Part shown: positions 2,278-10,976 of the stretch, one piece after another
How the letters are laid out: the number at the start of each line of letters is the position of its first letter
How positions within the stretch are numbered: position 1 is the first letter of the stretch
Source: Burkholderia cepacia ATCC 25416
GTDB lineage: Bacteria > Pseudomonadota > Gammaproteobacteria > Burkholderiales > Burkholderiaceae
DNA: 64,000 nucleotides
Direction: 5' to 3'
NCBI RefSeq assembly: GCF_001411495.1
Contig: NZ_CP012981.1
Span: 3,224,001-3,288,000 of the forward strand
Position numbers and translations under genes: made by a program
The notes under the pieces: generated by a model
Databases searched by the model: none
What the model was told of the DNA's origin: nothing
Seen by the model: the letters and a program-made list of their open reading frames with translations, nothing else

Positions 2278-3633
2278 TCAGGCGAAAACGGCATTCAGCG
2301 TTGCAAGAATTGCGGTCTGGCTGCCCCCTGCCAACGGAACCGTCACCGTAGATCCACTGAAGCCGACCACGCTTTGTCCGGCCGGAGCAGACTGCACGAA
2401 ACCATTCCGGGCGGTTGAGCCGGCCATACTGCCGAACGGGCCATAAGTGGCTCCGCTTTTCCCGGTCAACGTGAGTTGCAAAACACATTGCCAGCCGTAC
2501 CACACGCCCGTGTAGCCGGAAATGGACACGATCGGATCGTCAAGCGGAATATTGATGACCTGGGCAGTCCCGCTGTTTCCGCCGTGTTGCAACAAGGTAA
2601 ATATTCCGGTTCCCGTTCCCTGGGTGCCGGTGTTATATGGTCCCGTCCCGGTATTGACGGCCTGAACCGCGTTGAGTACGTCGCCTGACCGGATCGTCAT
2701 TCGGGTTAGGTTGGGATTACCTGCGGCGCTGATAATCGGTGTGTCGTCGAAGGCGTTGCTGGTGGGCGGATTTCCGAGTTGATCGAGAATCATGAACTGC
2801 GCCTGCTCGAACTGGAAGTTTCCCGAATTGAAGCGCCAGACAAAAATATCCTGATAATCGTACCGCGTACCCCCGGAAGAAAAACCTTCCGAAACCATGC
2901 TCCAGACCTGTTGCGCACTGGCATTGGGGGCGGAATTTCCCGGCTCGAACTGAGCGCCATAGCCAATCCTGGACGGCGATATGCCGGCATCAAGAAAATC
3001 CGATAGCGGCGTGCCGTCGTAGAATTGCGGAGAGATAAAATCGAACTGGCTATTGACCGTAGCGTAATCAATCGAACTGGTGGGCCATGCGGGCGTGAAT
3101 GACAGATAATATTTCACCGGCTGACGATCGAATTCGGCGCGAATTGAAGAGAACAGAATCTGAAACTGCGTTCGCGTCATTTTATCGGAAACATCGCCTT
3201 CCCAATCGATATCCAGGCCATTCATTCCATTATTCTGGAGATATGTCACCAGATTATTCGCAAAGTTGGCCGCCTGTGTTTGCGGATCTCCTCCTCCCGT
3301 GAAAACCGCCGCCAATGTATTGGCACCGGAATACACCATCGTGGCCAGAAATTTAATTCCAGGATTCACCTGACGCGCATCACGGAGTACAAAATTCAAA
3401 TAATCCTGATTGGTCAGCCCACCCGAATGCGACGCGTTGCCGATCTGGATCGTGGAACCCTGTGCGGCGGGAACGACCTCAAAAAAAGCAATGCCAAGAA
3501 AATTTGCACTGTCGTAAACCTTGCAATCGATCAGCGATTGATAGCAACTTTCGGGACTGTTGTAGTTGGTTTGTGGCGGTTCGTCTTCGTTCAAGAAAAT
3601 CCACGCATTGATGCCGTTTTGTAGGTTTGCCAT
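2278..3633 (-). CDS. GH18 chitinase-like domain fused to a jacalin-like lectin domain
   Basis: This 451-aa protein starts at the ATG at 3633, which has AGGAAAG just upstream. Residues 1-295 look like a glycosyl hydrolase 18 TIM barrel: the catalytic strand reads NGLDIDWE (138-145) with the proton donor Glu145, SPQFYDG sits at 201-207, and a late barrel Trp is at 266. The first Asp of the usual DGxDxDxE motif is Asn138. Residues about 308-451 resemble a jacalin-type beta-prism lectin, including YGPFG (397-401) and VVGFSGS (422-428). There is no signal peptide, which is odd for a secreted chitinase. Codon and base composition are AT-richer than the surrounding core, suggesting acquisition. The glycan target is unknown. 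Confidence 0.8.
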   Translation of the reverse strand: MANLQNGINAWIFLNEDEPPQTNYNSPESCYQSLIDCKVYDSANFLGIAFFEVVPAAQGSTIQIGNASHSGGLTNQDYLNFVLRDARQVNPGIKFLATMVYSGANTLAAVFTGGGDPQTQAANFANNLVTYLQNNGMNGLDIDWEGDVSDKMTRTQFQILFSSIRAEFDRQPVKYYLSFTPAWPTSSIDYATVNSQFDFISPQFYDGTPLSDFLDAGISPSRIGYGAQFEPGNSAPNASAQQVWSMVSEGFSSGGTRYDYQDIFVWRFNSGNFQFEQAQFMILDQLGNPPTSNAFDDTPIISAAGNPNLTRMTIRSGDVLNAVQAVNTGTGPYNTGTQGTGTGIFTLLQHGGNSGTAQVINIPLDDPIVSISGYTGVWYGWQCVLQLTLTGKSGATYGPFGSMAGSTARNGFVQSAPAGQSVVGFSGSTVTVPLAGGSQTAILATLNAVFA

Positions 3634-3707
3634 TTTTCTTTCCTGTGACGTAGCGTTTTTTGGCGGTGGCGCGCGACGCTGCAACTACAGTAGAAGGCCA
3701 CCAAATA

Positions 3708-4393: not shown

Positions 4394-4478
4394 TCAATTG
4401 CTTACAACCATGCGGATCGCAACGAAAATCCTGCAAGATCCTGCGTAAGCCAATGATTCAAGAGGAGCTTTTTACCGC

Positions 4479-4497
4479 TCACTCCCACTCGGTCATC
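4479..4497. repeat. Distal attachment site (displaced guaA 3' end)
   Basis: The sequence tcactcccactcggtcatc matches the guaA 3' end (tcactcccactcgatcgtc at 9357) at 17 of 19 positions, with the first 13 identical. It is interpreted as the original end of guaA displaced by the insertion. Confidence 0.7.
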
Positions 4498-4748
4498 AAT
4501 GAGACTCGCAAGTCCGCGATTTTAAGGATTTTTTAGTGATCGACATCGGCCTTTACCGCCACCTTTACCGTCAGAAGCGCAGGTCTTTGCTGGGGCGGGA
4601 GATGGAGCGACTTGTGGAGCCAGACACTTTCGGGCTTATCGTCGATCACGATGCATTTTAGCGCGCTTGGATCCGCAATGCGATCCTACATACGAGTGTG
4701 TCGACTCGCGCGAACCATATCCCCCATCGCCGTCGCGTAGCCCTAGCC

Positions 4749-6290
4749 CTACCGTCGCTGAATCTTGCCGCGTGCCGAAACGGGAGCGGGCCGAGGACGC
4801 GGAGGCGCCAGCATCGGGCTCGCACGGCTGGTGCCGAGTTGAAATTTCTGTGCCGCATCTACCAGTTCCAGCGTTCCGGACCGTCCAAACGAAATCTCAA
4901 GCCGACGCCTTTTCAGATCAAACGTGAAAGTGACGCCATCTCGCTGATACGTAGCACGCTTCGAGCGGTCGTCATCGTGAACGTCACCGCCTTGGTTCTC
5001 CTGGATGTCCTCAAGCTTTTCGACCAAATCATCGAAGGTGTCGTCCATACGCTCGAACTCGACAACCAGACAGTCGAACGTTGTGCCAAAAATTTCGTCG
5101 ATTGCAGCACGATGTTCGTCCCAACCCTGGCGCAACTCCAGCCGGCGACGAACGATGTATTCGGAAGAATCGTCGGGATTCTGTCCGGTCTCAACCGAGT
5201 AACGAAACGCAGCAGTGTCCAAGTCACCGCCGCCGCTGTCTTCAGCCTTTCGCACATCTTTGCGCCGCGCATTGAGTGCCTTTCGCGAAGTTTCATAGAG
5301 TTCCTGCAACTCGTCCGCCACCTGCTCAGTGAGGAGGCGCTGACACCAAGCTTCCGCCGATTCGCTCGCCTCGGTTGGCACGGTGTGGTACCCGCGCTTA
5401 AAGCCTGCGAGGGTGCGAATTTCACCAGTTTCGGTCCCTTCAAGGAACTCGCTACTGTTCCGCAGAGTAATTCCGGCCAATGCCTCGTCTGCAGGCACCG
5501 CGGGAGCGCGCGGGACGTAGCGGATCTGGAAGCTATTGGTTCCCGACAGAATAGCCTGCGGCGTTTGGCTTCCACGCACCTGCATCTCGCGAGTGATGTA
5601 TCGTGGGATTTCCTGACGGAGATGATCCCGCAAGCCGAAGTCGGTCAACCAATGATCCCGTGTCAACGCGTCGGGCGCCCGACCCTCAATTGCTTCGAGC
5701 AGGAAATAAGTCCACACGCCGTGCTGTAGCGTCGTTGATGGATAGGATTTCTCGCCTGGCGAGCACGAGAGGAAGACGCCAAGGTACCAGCCGCTGCCGA
5801 GGAATTCCCTGACCTCGGCCGCATCGAGATTGGAAATGACATCTCGCGACTTGACCGCACCACTGAACTTCTCGGCGCATGCGTCGACGAAAACGAGTGC
5901 TTGACGGCACGCACTTTCCGCTAGCGGCTCCAAGAGATCGTCGCGCATTGGCAGCGAAGTATTCTCAATGTTGGTGCGGTTCGTGTCGTAAGTGCTCAGG
6001 CGGTTTCCACCTGCGCCGTGAAATCCGTGGCCGGCGTAGTAGAAAATGAAGAGCTCGTCCTCTGCGAGATTCTGGATTGTGTACTTTAATTCATCGCGCA
6101 AAGCCGCAAGGCTCGCCTGCGCATCTTTGAGCACATGCACCGAAAGAGCGTCGTCAGGTAGATCGGCATAAATTCTCCGAATGGCATTAGCAAACGCATC
6201 GCCATCAGCATGCGCAAAATCGACAAGTGGCAACGCGTCGCCACTTGAAGGCTTTCGATAACTCTCAAGCGCCACGACAAAGGCGGTCAC
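4749..6290 (-). CDS. Caspase-like protease (peptidase C14 family)
   Basis: This is a 513-aa protein. Residues 1 to about 250 form a caspase/metacaspase p20-p10-like domain. The catalytic His88 is in FYYAGHG, the catalytic Cys138 is in VFVDACAE, and the acidic strand leading into the His (EDELFIF) is present. The C-terminal half is not recognised; about 330-440 is charged and probably helical, and the last 25 residues are Pro/Arg-rich. No membrane segment or sensor domain is visible. It starts with GTG in a 4-nt GTGA overlap with a short upstream ORF and has no ribosome-binding site of its own, implying translational coupling. In bacteria such proteases often act as effectors in cell-suicide or anti-phage systems. 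That role is inferred here from fold and neighbours. Confidence 0.85.
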   Translation of the reverse strand: MTAFVVALESYRKPSSGDALPLVDFAHADGDAFANAIRRIYADLPDDALSVHVLKDAQASLAALRDELKYTIQNLAEDELFIFYYAGHGFHGAGGNRLSTYDTNRTNIENTSLPMRDDLLEPLAESACRQALVFVDACAEKFSGAVKSRDVISNLDAAEVREFLGSGWYLGVFLSCSPGEKSYPSTTLQHGVWTYFLLEAIEGRAPDALTRDHWLTDFGLRDHLRQEIPRYITREMQVRGSQTPQAILSGTNSFQIRYVPRAPAVPADEALAGITLRNSSEFLEGTETGEIRTLAGFKRGYHTVPTEASESAEAWCQRLLTEQVADELQELYETSRKALNARRKDVRKAEDSGGGDLDTAAFRYSVETGQNPDDSSEYIVRRRLELRQGWDEHRAAIDEIFGTTFDCLVVEFERMDDTFDDLVEKLEDIQENQGGDVHDDDRSKRATYQRDGVTFTFDLKRRRLEISFGRSGTLELVDAAQKFQLGTSRASPMLAPPRPRPAPVSARGKIQRR

Positions 6291-6361
6291 ACGAGAAAAA
6301 CTGCGCTTCGATGGAGCGCCCCCTCTAACAATTCCGCACCAACACTTATTCGCTTAGCCAT
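6287..6361 (-). CDS. 24-aa leader ORF overlapping the caspase-like gene
   Basis: The short frame begins with ATG at 6361 (context MAKRISVGAE), with GAGG about 7 nt upstream. It ends at a TGA that overlaps the GTG start of the protease (GTGA). The protease itself has no usable upstream start: the next in-frame stop is a TAA just upstream. This arrangement suggests that translating the leader delivers ribosomes to the protease start. The peptide is not recognised. It could also be a chance frame. Confidence 0.45.
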   Translation of the reverse strand: MAKRISVGAELLEGALHRSAVFLV

Positions 6362-6565
6362 TGTTACCCTCGTCAATAAACTCACGCTCAAACGGTCAGA
6401 CATCGGTGCGTAGGCAATCCATCGCCACATCGACGTTCGAGATATTGGCGAATTTCCTTAAATCACCCCACACACCGCCAACAGGTCTCGCAGGGATCAA
6501 GCATTAAGTGATTTAATTTTTTGAATCATCTACGGCCGGAAGATTAAATTCATCAACACCCCCAA

Positions 6566-7471
6566 CTATTCGATGGTCAAATAATCGCCTGGATTGTTTT
6601 TTACATCGCCCGGACGCGGCCTCCTCCCCATGTATACAAACTCCATCAACGAGTTGAATTCTTTAACACCCTCAGACTCTCCCTCTACGAAACCGACCTT
6701 TCTATAAAGCTCAATAGCACTTTCGAAGTCATAATAAAGCGGACCATGTTGATCAATCGTTTTAGCCACGGTCCTCACTCTTTTCGCGCATAGCTCGTAC
6801 ATACTCGGAGCACTTTCCACTAATTTCTCGGCTATAGCGTGGCCAAAGCTCTCGGCCATATCACGCGCCCCCTTCTCGGATATCGATGGCAAGGCACTTA
6901 GCTGCTCTTTACGCTCATCAAGCCATGCTAGAGCAGCCTCCTCATCAAATGCCTTCAATGTCGCCAACGACAACTTGTCGATTAATATCAAATTAGCAGG
7001 ATCTTGACTGTAAAGTACGCTCAATGACAAATAACGTACCGTTGGAGGCAAAATGGAAAACGCGGAAGTAATGCGCTCATTTTCGCCGAAAGCATGGCGC
7101 CGAAAATAATCAATAAATAAATACGCATATAAATCAAACAGGGCCAACACCATTTCATGCACATCCTGCTCGGATGCACTGCTTAGCTCTTCAGTATGCG
7201 TAAATTTACTGCCGACCGCATTAATCCTTTCAACAGATGAAATTAAAAAATGATCGTTATTACTCTTTTCCACAAGTGATTTTTTTGTCGTTGGCGAACC
7301 TAGATTAAGACGTTGGCCATCGGGCATGTCCAATAGTTTTCGAACAACGATCTCCGCATATTGTCTTATAGTGGATGCTTTCCCTCTAAGCGACCGGTCA
7401 ACGAGATAGAAGGCATCGTTAAGGAGATCCTGCAACATCGCCTCATAGGCTTGGTTATTGAAATTCGGCAT
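6566..7471 (-). CDS. Unknown 301-aa island protein, possibly DUF4145/HEPN-like N-terminus
   Basis: I do not recognise this protein with confidence. The N-terminal 110 residues are helical, with an arrangement (RSLRGKASTIRQYAEIVVRKLL) reminiscent of DUF4145/HEPN-like domains, but no clear RX4-6H nuclease motif is seen. The rest is acidic-basic helical with no membrane segment. The ATG at 7471 follows a weak AAGGG. Codon use is AT-rich compared with the flanking core genes. It lies between a HEPN-type gene and a caspase-like gene on the same strand, with gaps of 261 and 204 bp, so it may be a sensor or partner. That is inference. Confidence 0.6.
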   Translation of the reverse strand: MPNFNNQAYEAMLQDLLNDAFYLVDRSLRGKASTIRQYAEIVVRKLLDMPDGQRLNLGSPTTKKSLVEKSNNDHFLISSVERINAVGSKFTHTEELSSASEQDVHEMVLALFDLYAYLFIDYFRRHAFGENERITSAFSILPPTVRYLSLSVLYSQDPANLILIDKLSLATLKAFDEEAALAWLDERKEQLSALPSISEKGARDMAESFGHAIAEKLVESAPSMYELCAKRVRTVAKTIDQHGPLYYDFESAIELYRKVGFVEGESEGVKEFNSLMEFVYMGRRPRPGDVKNNPGDYLTIE

Positions 7472-7732
7472 CTATGCCCTTTGAAGTAGTCATAAAATTC
7501 GGGCTACGCAGCAATTTTTTATCCCATGCAGCCCCGTGATCCTAATCACCGGCCTCGCTCGACCGCGGTTGCCCGTGTGATGGTGTGCGGCCTGTTCCGC
7601 TTTAGAAAGCCCTGATACAGAAGCATATTGCGAAGGTTCGATTCTTTGCGTTGCCTGCACTCTTTCGCAGGTCATTTCTAAGTCCCAGTTGCTCGCAGTC
7701 GTATCGAGAATCCCCGATGCAACTGGCACGAC
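7472..7732. other. Spacer between two island genes
   Basis: This 261-bp stretch lies between the 301-aa gene and the TIGR02391 gene. A 79-codon minus-strand frame exists here but has no ribosome-binding site or recognisable domain. A T-arm-like string at 7633-7649 is not part of a foldable tRNA. I see nothing else. Confidence 0.5.
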
Positions 7733-8446
7733 TCAGGTCTTCGGAGCGTCTTTCGCTTCATAGATCCGTCGGACTAGGAGGCTGGCGAAGATCAGATACT
7801 GCGCGGCCTTCTCCGGGTCGAGATCATGATTTAGCGAATGAGCCTTGGGATTACGAATGCCAAGGTAAGCACCGACCAAAATTTGCATGAATCCCTTCTG
7901 GTCATTTCTGCCCGATTCCGTGTCAAGTTCACTGAGGATCAGGTGTGGCTTTTCCAAGCTCAACACTTGCGTCGCGAGCGCCGCGCCGTCGAGATCCAGG
8001 CCGGTGCGCTCTCGCATCAGATCAAAGATTGCGACCACCGAGTTCAATACGGCATCGCGGTAGTGTCCGTCCACATAGTGCTGGAAGGCATGCGCGAAGA
8101 TTACCGGATGCAGCAGTTCCTCGAAGCCTATGCTCGGTTTGGTGCCCGTCGCGTCGCGCACATGCGCTTCTGCCCTCACCTCAACCTGGGGTAGATCGCG
8201 CGCAAGGATGTCGTCGTAATCATTAGCGTCGCCAAATCCGATATGCCTCCCAAGATTTCCCATGTCTTGCTCCGGGAACCCTGCGCCGGTCCACAGCTTG
8301 CGCAGCAGTTGATAGTCGGCTTTCAAATAGCCATTAATCAACTTGGCTCCTGCTTTATCGTCGCTAGCAAGGAGGCCTTGTGCATCGATCGCTTTCTGAC
8401 GCATTGCCCGAAACAGGGAATTTACCTCCAAGTACCATTCAAGCAT
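7733..8446 (-). CDS. TIGR02391 (Ymh-type) family protein with HEPN RNase motif
   Basis: This 237-aa protein matches the TIGR02391 pattern: an N-terminal helical part, the segment HPVIFAHAFQHYVDGHYRDAV at about 113-133, and the C-terminal GIRNPKAH. The last contains R198-x4-H203, the HEPN RNase signature. Proteins of this family are found in phage-resistance and plasmid contexts and are regarded as abortive-infection-type candidates. I chose the ATG at 8446 because a strong GGGGAGAG lies 5-6 nt upstream; an earlier ATG at 8524 has none. It is the first cargo gene of the island, co-directional with the 301-aa protein and the protease. It is likely an RNA-cleaving effector, but this is untested. 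Confidence 0.75.
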   Translation of the reverse strand: MLEWYLEVNSLFRAMRQKAIDAQGLLASDDKAGAKLINGYLKADYQLLRKLWTGAGFPEQDMGNLGRHIGFGDANDYDDILARDLPQVEVRAEAHVRDATGTKPSIGFEELLHPVIFAHAFQHYVDGHYRDAVLNSVVAIFDLMRERTGLDLDGAALATQVLSLEKPHLILSELDTESGRNDQKGFMQILVGAYLGIRNPKAHSLNHDLDPEKAAQYLIFASLLVRRIYEAKDAPKT

Positions 8447-8608
8447 TGCGTCTCTCCCCGGTTGATCGTTTCCATTTAACAAGGCATCACTAACGCCGCA
8501 TGACGCCTGAGCGACTGTCGGCATCGTCGCGCAACGTACGGGCGTTCGTACCTCTACTTTTTTCTCAGCATCAGCTGAATCATGGCGAACAGGCGATGGA
8601 ACAGGTAG

Positions 8609-9049
8609 TCAACCTGGTCCACATCGATCACCGGCACCTGGCTGATCTCCGAATGCCGAATGAGGTGACTGTTTCCAATAGACTGAACGCCGCATGTCCC
8701 GCGTGGAGTCAGCCATCTGGTACCCGCGCAGCCATTTTTCCGCCCAGGCGTCGAAAGTCTCCGCGTCCTTGATGCGGGCCTTGTCCCGCGCCTTCTCCTT
8801 GGCCGGCGACTTTCCAGCCGCAATCATCTTCTTGGCCTCACCAAGACGCTCGCGCGCCTCCGAAAGGGTAATGCCCCCGACTGCGTACCGGCCAAACGTG
8901 ATGGTTTCCTGCCGGCCGTGGATCGAGTAGTTATAACGAAACGAGATAGCTCCGGCAGCCGTGACGGCAACATAGAGGCCATCGCGGTCGTTCACCTTGT
9001 ACAGCTTGTTCTTCGGCTTGAGGTTGCGCAGCTTGGTATCGGTCAGCAT
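8609..9049 (-). pseudogene. Truncated tyrosine recombinase (phage-type integrase), catalytic domain lost
   Basis: Residues 1-85 form the arm-binding DUF4102 domain typical of island integrases (LTDTKLRNLKPK near the start, then GLYVAV and TITFGRY). The start of the core-binding domain follows (ETFDAWAEKWLRGYQMADST). Homology stops at about residue 117, after RRSVY. The next sequence is unrelated in all frames and ends in a short out-of-frame tail. The catalytic R-H-R-Y domain is absent, so a deletion near 8690-8700 has probably killed the gene. It sits next to the guaA attachment site, as expected for the integrase of a guaA island. Confidence 0.8.
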
Positions 9050-9073
9050 GATCGGTGTTCAGATTCGGTACAA

Positions 9074-9227
9074 ATACCATGATCTGGGGACCGTCCAATT
9101 CCGGATGAAAAACACGAAAAATCAATGTGTTATCCAGAATCAATACCATGATGCGCCGCAAAGCAGGCGCATGGTATCGGTAGCACGTCATGGCATCACG
9201 CAGAAACGATACCATCGTTCATACCAT
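9074..9227. repeat. Five ATACCAT repeats, candidate integrase arm-binding sites
   Basis: The heptamer ataccat occurs at 9074-9080, 9143-9149, 9209-9215 and 9221-9227, and inverted (atggtat) at 9171-9177. The first two copies extend to aataccatgat. They lie between the integrase start and the guaA attachment site, where arm-type sites of such recombinases usually lie. Integrase binding is inferred. Confidence 0.55.
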
Positions 9228-9283
9228 AAGGAAAACGTGCTTGAGGGTGCCGGAAGATACCGGCCATTGCCAGACAGGAATGC

Positions 9284-9309
9284 AAAAAAGCCCGCAAAAT
9301 CGCGGGCTT
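9284..9309 (-). terminator. Rho-independent terminator after guaA
   Basis: The stem aagcccgc / gcgggctt (8 bp, 6-nt loop) is followed on the minus strand by six U residues. It is about 50 nt past the guaA stop and lies on the island side of the attachment site, so the island appears to supply guaA with its present terminator. Confidence 0.85.
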
Positions 9310-9356
9310 AGGTGTGTTTTACTGCCAACGGATGCCGGCCGGTGCCGGACGCCGGA

Positions 9357-9375
9357 TCACTCCCACTCGATCGTC
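9357..9375. repeat. Proximal attachment site within the guaA 3' end
   Basis: These 19 bp encode, on the minus strand, the last five residues of GuaA (TIEWE) and the stop codon. The near-copy at 4479-4497 is the other end of the island. Confidence 0.7.
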
Positions 9376-10976
9376 GCCGGCGGCTTGCCCGAGATGTCGT
9401 ACACGACCCGGTTGATCCCGCGCACCTCGTTGATGATCCGGTTCGACGCGCGGCCGAGCAGCGCGTACGGCAGGTGCGCCCAGTGTGCGGTCATGAAGTC
9501 GGTCGTCTGCACGGCGCGCAGCGACGTCACGTAGTCATACGTGCGGCCATCGCCCATCACGCCCACCGACTTGACCGGCAGAAACACCGCGAACGCCTGG
9601 CTCGTCAGGTCGTACCAGGTCTTGCCGACATCGGCTTCGCCGCACAGGCCGGCAGCCGCATCCTGCGCGGTCGCGGTCGTGTTGCGCAGTTCCTCGATGA
9701 AGATCGCGTCCGCGCGGCGCAGCAGGTCCGCGTATTCGCGCTTCACTTCGCCGAGAATCCGCACGCCGAGGCCCGGGCCCGGGAACGGATGGCGGTACAC
9801 CATCTCCGGCGGCAGGCCGAGTGCGACACCCAGCTCGCGCACTTCGTCCTTGAACAGGTCGCGCAGCGGCTCGAGCAGCTTCAGGCCGAGCGTTTCCGGC
9901 AGACCACCGACGTTGTGGTGGCTCTTGATCGTGGTCGCCTTCTTCGTCTTCGTGCCGCCCGATTCGACCACGTCCGGGTAGATCGTGCCCTGCGCGAGCC
10001 ACTTCGCCTTCGACAGCTTCTTCGCCTCGGCCTGGAACACCTCGACGAACTCGCGGCCGATGATCTTGCGCTTCGCTTCCGGATCGGTCACGCCGGCCAG
10101 GTGGCCGAGGAACTGTTCGGATGCGTCGACGTGCACGACCTTCGCATGCAGGCGGCCTTCGAACATGTCGAGCACCATCTTGCCTTCGTTGAGGCGCAGC
10201 AGGCCGTGGTCGACGAACACGCAGGTCAACTGATCGCCGATCGCGCGATGGATCAGCGCGGCTGCGACGCTCGAATCGACACCGCCCGACAGGCCGAGAA
10301 TCACTTCCTCGTCACCGACCTGCTCGCGGATCTTCGCGACGGCTTCCTCGATGTGATTCTTCATGATCCAGTCGGGCTTCGCGCCGGCGATCTGCAGCAC
10401 GAAGCGCTCGATGATCTGGCGGCCCTTCACCGTGTGCGTGACTTCCGGGTGGAACTGCACCGCGTAGTAGCCGCGCGCCTCGTCGGCCATGCCGGCGATC
10501 GGGCAGCTCGGCGTCGACGCCATCAGCGCGAAGCCCGGCGGCAGCTCGGCAACCTTGTCGCCGTGGCTCATCCAGACCTTCAGCATCCCGTGGCCTTCGT
10601 CGGTCTTGAAATCCTCGATGCCGTCGAGCAGGCGCGTATGGCCATGCGCGCGCATTTCCGCGTAACCGAATTCGCGGTGGTCGCTCCACTCGACCTTGCC
10701 GCCGAGCTGCACGGCCATCGTCTGCATGCCGTAGCAGATGCCGAGCACCGGCACGCCGAGATCCCACACGGCCTGCGGCGCGCGCAGCTGGTGGTCTTCG
10801 TACGTGCTCGCGTGGCTGCCCGACAGGATCACCGCCTTCGGCGCGAATTCGCGGACGAAGTCGTCGGACACGTCGTTCGGATGGATTTCGCAGTAGACGT
10901 GCGCTTCACGCACGCGGCGCGCGATCAGTTGGGTGACTTGCGAACCGAAGTCGAGAATCAGGATTTTGTCGTGCAT
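9357..10976 (-). CDS. guaA: GMP synthase (glutamine-hydrolysing)
   Basis: This 539-aa enzyme makes GMP from XMP, ATP and glutamine, the last step of guanine nucleotide synthesis. The N-terminal class I glutaminase has Cys81 (GICYG), His176 and Glu178 (HPE). The ATP-pyrophosphatase P-loop LSGGVDSS is at 229-236, and the C-terminal dimerisation domain ends in TIEWE. It is full length. Its last codons are the attachment site of the neighbouring island, which leaves the protein sequence intact. It lies on the same strand as guaB, separated from it only by a small membrane-protein gene. Confidence 0.98.

What the first reader, a model, noticed from the sequence alone, without database searches (positions are those of the whole stretch)
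4749..8446. Candidate defence module: HEPN (TIGR02391), unknown 301-aa protein and caspase-like protease on one island
Three same-strand genes make up essentially the whole cargo of a guaA island: a protein with a HEPN R-x4-H motif (TIGR02391/Ymh type), an unrecognised 301-aa protein, and a caspase-fold protease with an intact His88/Cys138 dyad. HEPN RNases and caspase-like proteases are both known effector types in bacterial abortive infection. I do not recall this three-gene combination as a named system. What is seen is the motifs and layout; the anti-phage role is inference.
Basis: partly seen in the sequence, partly recalled or inferred. Interest (0 to 1): 0.85.

Follow-up and report, generated by a model that had tools for sequence, protein, structure and literature searches.

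The report
Mobile caspase–HEPN gene pair on island
A small mobile DNA island carries a caspase-like protease gene next to a gene whose protein seems to fold like a known class of RNA-cutting immune proteins, and this pair, not the three-gene set first proposed, travels together as a possible anti-virus module of bacteria.

The parts
4479..4497 (.). left att-like direct repeat of the island
   Evidence: 17 of 19 identical to 9357-9375
4721..7575 (-). two-gene cassette (301-aa gene then caspase) shared with the Paraburkholderia island
   Evidence: blastn to L018 (window 4721-4991, 94.8%) and L017 (6049-7575, 92.2%); the middle of the caspase falls in a contig break of that genome
4749..6290 (-). 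caspase-like (paracaspase-type) protease, 513 aa from GTG; residues 1-260 caspase fold, about 270-490 alpha/beta part of unassigned fold
6566..7471 (-). 301-aa protein: HEPN-like N-terminal part (about 6-119) and helical, weakly TPR-like C-terminal half
7472..7575 (-). conserved upstream region of the 301-aa gene, possible promoter of the pair
   Evidence: 95.2% identical to L017, against 90.0% at third codon positions and 85.7% in the gap between the genes; no consensus promoter found
7733..8446 (-). Ymh (TIGR02391) HEPN protein, 237 aa, Rx4H intact; separate acquisition
   Evidence: PF09509 5.1e-36, TIGR02391 5.7e-23; relatives of 96-97% identity and 237 aa; outside the shared block
8609..9049 (-). 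fragment (146 aa, N-terminal part) of a tyrosine integrase with Arm-DNA-bind_3 domain
   Evidence: PF13356 1e-19, no PF00589 match; phrog_1 integrase 2.1e-14
9357..9375 (.). right att-like repeat on the 3' end of guaA

Best explanation
The 4.9-kb guaA island carries a two-gene mobile cassette, transcribed as 301-aa gene then caspase, and beside it an independently acquired Ymh HEPN RNase gene. I think the cassette is an abortive-infection type immune unit. The 301-aa protein, a HEPN-like domain mostly without the usual catalytic Arg joined to a TPR-like helical half, would act as sensor or adaptor (or as a substrate) for the protease. The paracaspase-like protease, switched on by it and perhaps by processing in its flexible linker just after the catalytic Cys, cleaves cell proteins or its partner and stops growth. 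Shown: genes, the unit of transfer, purifying selection; folds by prediction. Inferred: defence role, co-transcription, partnership, activation and target.
For: The same two genes, order, strand and ~200-bp gap occur in another island with its own complete integrase beside tRNA-Leu. Homology ends 104 bp before the 301-aa start and 28 bp after the caspase stop. Of 398 genomes of the family each gene is in 2, the same 2, own genome included. dS of both genes is 0.16-0.18 with dN/dS 0.09-0.24. The region upstream of the 301-aa gene is better conserved than the gap between the genes. Clusters P0002 (301-aa family) and P0098 (caspase) share a longest contig of 7599 bp, a probable third joint occurrence. 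Three other caspase loci have defence-type neighbours. The 301-aa family lies among genes of several kinds of phage. Active-site residues are invariant, and a linker at 139-166 of pLDDT below 50 holds an Arg149 invariant in 45 of 45. A precedent for proteolytic gating is Canu, where a caspase activates a nuclease (PMC12799240, passages read).
Against: The caspase occurs without the 301-aa gene in 3 of 5 loci that hold both ends of it, and in a sixth locus with a fragment; the 301-aa gene occurs without caspase in 7 of 9 loci, as far as the DNA held reaches. So neither needs the other in general. The two cassette copies are recent relatives (dS 0.17), so hitchhiking is possible. The genes do not overlap, and their G+C differs (57.1% and 44.6%). 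No consensus promoter was found in 4400-9400. The window copy of the caspase has its 5' end out of frame with relatives. Only 3 of 54 family members have an Arg at the Rx4-6H spacing, the window copy none. HEPN-like rows stand only 0.4 to 1.5 Z (Csm6' 3.0) above generic four-helix bundles such as BRIL fusions. No functional data.
Confidence: 0.42

Rival explanations
1. Three independent single-gene defence genes stacked in one small island; the caspase and the 301-aa protein only travelled together in the recent past.
For: Each family stands without the other in most loci seen. In G962 the protease is followed by AbiEi/AbiEii-type genes; in G1213 it is on the opposite strand from the defence genes next to it. 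The 301-aa family occurs without caspase among phage genes. DUF4145-bearing BxaP protects against T4 as a single gene (PMC10799925, passages read). G+C of the 301-aa gene (44.6%) differs from caspase (57.1%) and Ymh (54.6%).
Against: The shared block begins and ends close to the outer ends of exactly these two genes, in islands at different sites, with a better conserved upstream region before the first gene.
Confidence: 0.4
2. A three-gene defence system of Ymh-HEPN, 301-aa protein and caspase.
For: Same strand, one island. In G1213 another Ymh-type gene (32% identity, PD-Lambda-3_B type) lies 1.6 kb from the caspase.
Against: No Ymh relative was found in the whole Paraburkholderia draft genome. 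The shared DNA stops at 7575, before Ymh. The three Ymh clusters of 96-97% identity (164, 97 and 27 members) have longest contigs (18,933, 9,299 and 54,665 bp) that, compared by eye, match none of the listed caspase or 301-aa clusters. No second trio locus found.
Confidence: 0.05
3. Cargo with another role (for example host physiology or element maintenance), or a decaying remnant, rather than phage defence.
For: No experimental data; the integrase is truncated and the 5' end of the caspase frame is shifted in this assembly.
Against: Purifying selection since the two copies parted; defence-type neighbours in three other loci; position among phage genes.
Confidence: 0.13

Closest known systems
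Canu (caspase-nuclease) defence loci
   Same: MALT1-like bacterial caspase beside a possible effector partner, in mobile or defence islands; caspase possibly an activating protease
   Different: Canu has an MBL-fold DNase downstream and an Ig-like domain in the caspase protein (PMC12799240, passages); here a HEPN-like 301-aa gene lies upstream, no MBL domain was found in the island, and the caspase C-terminal part is modelled as alpha/beta
BxaP (DUF4145 single-gene defence)
   Same: DUF4145-like N-terminal domain and helical repeat-like C-terminal half; probable abortive infection
   Different: Found in BREX and RM loci and works alone (PMC10799925, passages); sequence relation not tested; the 301-aa family is found beside a caspase in two islands
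EACC1-caspase two-gene conflict systems
   Same: Caspase as second gene of a two-gene unit; the only NCBIfam match is NF047832
   Different: Score 48.5 against a cut-off of 140; first gene there is a transmembrane EACC1 protein (PMC7159879, passages), here a predicted helical protein without an EACC1 match
Ymh / TIGR02391 HEPN family
   Same: The 7733-8446 protein is a member: domain over cut-off and Rx4H intact
   Different: Not part of the mobile pair; only its HEPN part matches Aga_HEPN and PD-Lambda-3_B, without their partners in the island
Agrobacterium pAtK224b caspase with pP_pnuc/Aga nuclease (L015)
   Same: Distant relative of the same protease (35% over 95%), including the C-terminal part
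   Different: Overlaps an Aga-type nuclease gene instead of standing beside the 301-aa gene

Membership tests
Caspase/paracaspase-fold proteases | Caspase fold with His-Cys dyad | tested here: met
Canu | MBL-fold nuclease gene next to the caspase | tested here: not met
   Pfam scan of the four recognised island genes gives no MBL domain; neighbours are HEPN-like genes
Canu | Ig-like domain after the caspase domain | tested here: inconclusive
   C-terminal part modelled as alpha/beta; not searched as a domain by itself
EACC1-caspase system | Caspase of the EACC1-associated type at the curated cut-off | tested here: not met
   NF047832 48.5 bits, cut-off 140
EACC1-caspase system | 5' gene with an EACC1 transmembrane domain | not tested
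   No NCBIfam hit of any kind for the 301-aa protein; no transmembrane predictor at hand
HEPN superfamily (301-aa protein) | HEPN four-helix fold | tested here: inconclusive
Catalytic HEPN RNase (301-aa protein) | R-x4-6-H motif | tested here: not met
   His92 54 of 54; Arg 4 to 6 residues before it in 3 of 54 members, not in the window copy; Arg at x7 in 11 of 54
Ymh/TIGR02391 HEPN (7733-8446) | PF09509 domain and Rx4H | tested here: met
   5.1e-36, 123.6 bits against 25; RNPKAH in the sequence
PD-Lambda-3 | Full-length B protein and A partner | tested here: not met
   Only residues 139-257 match PD-Lambda-3_B; no PD-Lambda-3_A match among the island proteins scanned
Argonaute-associated (Aga) system | Argonaute and nuclease beside Aga_HEPN | tested here: not met
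   Aga_HEPN matches residues 114-258 only; no Aga nuclease or argonaute match among the island proteins scanned
BxaP | Sequence or structural homology to BxaP | not tested
   BxaP sequence not at hand; architecture only, from passages of PMC10799925

The most novel reading that the evidence does not exclude
A two-gene immune circuit in which a HEPN-fold, TPR-like protein, repurposed as a sensor or pro-effector, gates a MALT1-like bacterial paracaspase that matures in the linker after its catalytic Cys: a counterpart of Canu and of animal caspase activation with a HEPN partner instead of a nuclease.
Probability: 0.27. Interest if true: 0.72.

Novelty: new variant of a known kind. Interest (0 to 1): 0.5.

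Why it matters
If the pair works together, it adds HEPN-like proteins to the partners of bacterial caspases and gives a minimal, 2.9-kb mobile system in which protease-gated immunity can be dissected. Even if not, it points to two uncharacterised families as defence candidates: a 301-aa HEPN-like protein carried among phage genes, which PADLOC 2.0 does not match, and a paracaspase with its own C-terminal part, which PADLOC matches only by its general caspase model.

Tried and rejected
Trio as module: rejected. GH18-like gene 2278-3684 as island cargo: it lies outside the att-bounded element. Viral contigs for the caspase: 26 stretches matched a pattern, none encoded a relative; for the 301-aa sequence alone 1 stretch, none a relative, while its alignment found 7. 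Plasmids for the 301-aa protein: none; phages: none; E. coli genomes with a prophage relative's DNA: none. Phylum draw for the caspase: only the window's own genome of 398; 301-aa profile in 20 drawn genomes: 0. A weak YopM match of the 301-aa protein, E 0.0037, was set aside as chance: the family profile does not find it and the model is all helical. PADLOC hits of a few 301-family members (PD-T7-4 in 5 of 54, best 0.004; Csx1/Csm6 in 1, 0.0015) are too weak to use. BFVD gave nothing at E <= 0.001. Weak resemblance of part of the caspase model to AdoMet decarboxylase (E 0.006 to 0.02) not interpreted. Repeats around Ymh: nothing convincing. Ymh in viral contigs: 1 locus (L029), not studied further. 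Contig-length matching was done by eye and is only indirect: 2069 bp also occurs in both lists (P0049, P0117) but is too short for both genes, so it was dropped as coincidence. A DUF4365 label that I gave by eye to a G1213 neighbour was dropped: Pfam has no match.

Limits: the 398-, 398-, 341- and 317-genome sets are draws from larger groups, caspase matches were counted at E <= 1e-20, and few candidates per genome were scored. Flanks held are limited (L009 is a whole 10.7-kb contig, L008 holds 3.8 kb on one side), and of the seven viral loci L010/L012 and L013/L014 are close pairs. Only the best 120 of 268 caspase and of 812 Ymh relatives were listed, and for the caspase only the 7997 candidates sharing most words were scored. 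Alignments were built from chosen members: the window copy plus 53 of 95 hits for the 301-aa family, the window copy plus 44 of the 120 listed for the caspase.
Full report
What is there. The window belongs to an 8.6-Mb genome of four contigs. I place it in the family Burkholderiaceae: genome G355, of the same family, has a 68,504-base contig that matches NZ_PVEN01000027.1 of Paraburkholderia sp. BL21I4N1 in length and gene position. On the minus strand, downstream of guaA, lie a Ymh-type gene (7733-8446), a 301-aa gene (6566-7471) and a caspase-like gene (4749-6290). A 19-nt direct repeat, 17 of 19 identical, lies at 4479-4497 and on the 3' end of guaA at 9357-9375, so the element is 4.9 kb long. 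It holds the three genes and a 146-aa fragment of a tyrosine integrase. The GH18-like gene at 2278-3684 lies outside it.

What travels together. In the Paraburkholderia genome the 301-aa gene and the caspase lie side by side in the same order and strand, with the caspase cut by a contig break. DNA identity is 92.2% over window 6049-7575 and 94.8% over 4721-4991. It stops 104 bp before the 301-aa start and 28 bp after the caspase stop; beyond 7575 the alignment falls to chance level. That island has its own complete integrase beside two tRNA-Leu genes, and a 948-aa gene with AAA and SEC-C matches upstream of the 301-aa gene; Ymh was not found in that genome. Synonymous divergence is 0.175 for the 301-aa gene and 0.177 and 0.155 for the two ends of the caspase (80 codons each); dN/dS is 0.24, 0.094 and 0.149. 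The 104 bp upstream of the 301-aa gene are 95.2% identical, third codon positions of that gene 90.0%, the gap between the genes 85.7%, as if one promoter before the 301-aa gene were kept, though no consensus promoter was found. In 398 genomes of the family each gene occurs in 2, the same 2. Clusters P0002 and P0098 share a longest contig of 7599 bp, a probable third case. So the mobile unit is the pair.

What speaks against a strict system. A profile search of 16 fetched loci finds both families only in the Paraburkholderia DNA (L001 and L017, the same contig), besides the window. That is 3 of 5 loci that hold both ends of the caspase gene, plus the fragment. A search of those two genomes with the 301-aa profile found none. 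The 301-aa family stands without caspase in 7 of 9 loci, all seven in viral contigs with tail, terminase, DNA polymerase or other phage genes alongside; two pairs of these contigs are closely similar. Each family can therefore live alone.

Reading. I hold a mobile abortive-infection cassette with some functional link between the two proteins slightly more likely than a stack of independent defence genes. Canu shows that a bacterial MALT1-like caspase can activate a partner enzyme and that the system protects against T4 (PMC12799240, passages read), and BxaP shows that a DUF4145-bearing protein can protect alone (PMC10799925, passages read). The Ymh gene is separate: relatives of 96-97% identity are common elsewhere (clusters of 164, 97 and 27 members). 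The caspase copy in this window may be weakened, as its first ~24 codons stand in another frame than in relatives; it may also be an assembly error.

Novelty. No paper in the held library contains both DUF4145 and caspase, and two contain caspase, HEPN and anti-phage defence together (seen as listing with the start of the abstracts only). EACC1-caspase systems were read in passages (PMC7159879) and do not fit by the curated score. I rate it a new variant of a known kind: caspase-based bacterial immunity with a HEPN-type partner, defence role unproven.

Noticed in passing
window 2278-3684: GH18-type (chitinase-like) protein gene in a lower-GC stretch just outside the att-bounded island, possibly the remains of an older neighbouring element.
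   Followed up: partly
window 6290-6362: Relatives have ~24 further codons before the caspase domain; in this assembly they stand in a different frame from the domain.
   Followed up: partly
window 8678-9055: The integrase fragment is 79-81% identical in DNA to stretches of plasmids of enterobacteria, Acinetobacter and others; 14 of the 20 rows listed are annotated as integrase (1985 records had some match to the 4.6-kb query).
   Followed up: no
L015 7075-9497: A distant caspase of the same family overlaps by 4 nt an Aga/pPIWI-associated nuclease gene on Agrobacterium plasmid pAtK224b: another possible caspase-nuclease pair.
   Followed up: partly
window 4749-6290, residues 139-166: Low-confidence linker after the catalytic Cys with an Arg (149) invariant in 45 of 45 aligned sequences, a possible self-processing site.
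   Followed up: partly
L008-L014: 301-aa family members lie among genes of several kinds of phage without a caspase nearby, a source of single-gene defence candidates.
   Followed up: partly
L016 7923-8402: Fragment of the caspase gene near TniB/TniQ-type transposition genes on a Sinorhizobium plasmid.
   Followed up: no
G000 C1:56162-56497 (L026): A second Ymh-type HEPN stretch (34% identity) elsewhere in the window's genome.
   Followed up: no
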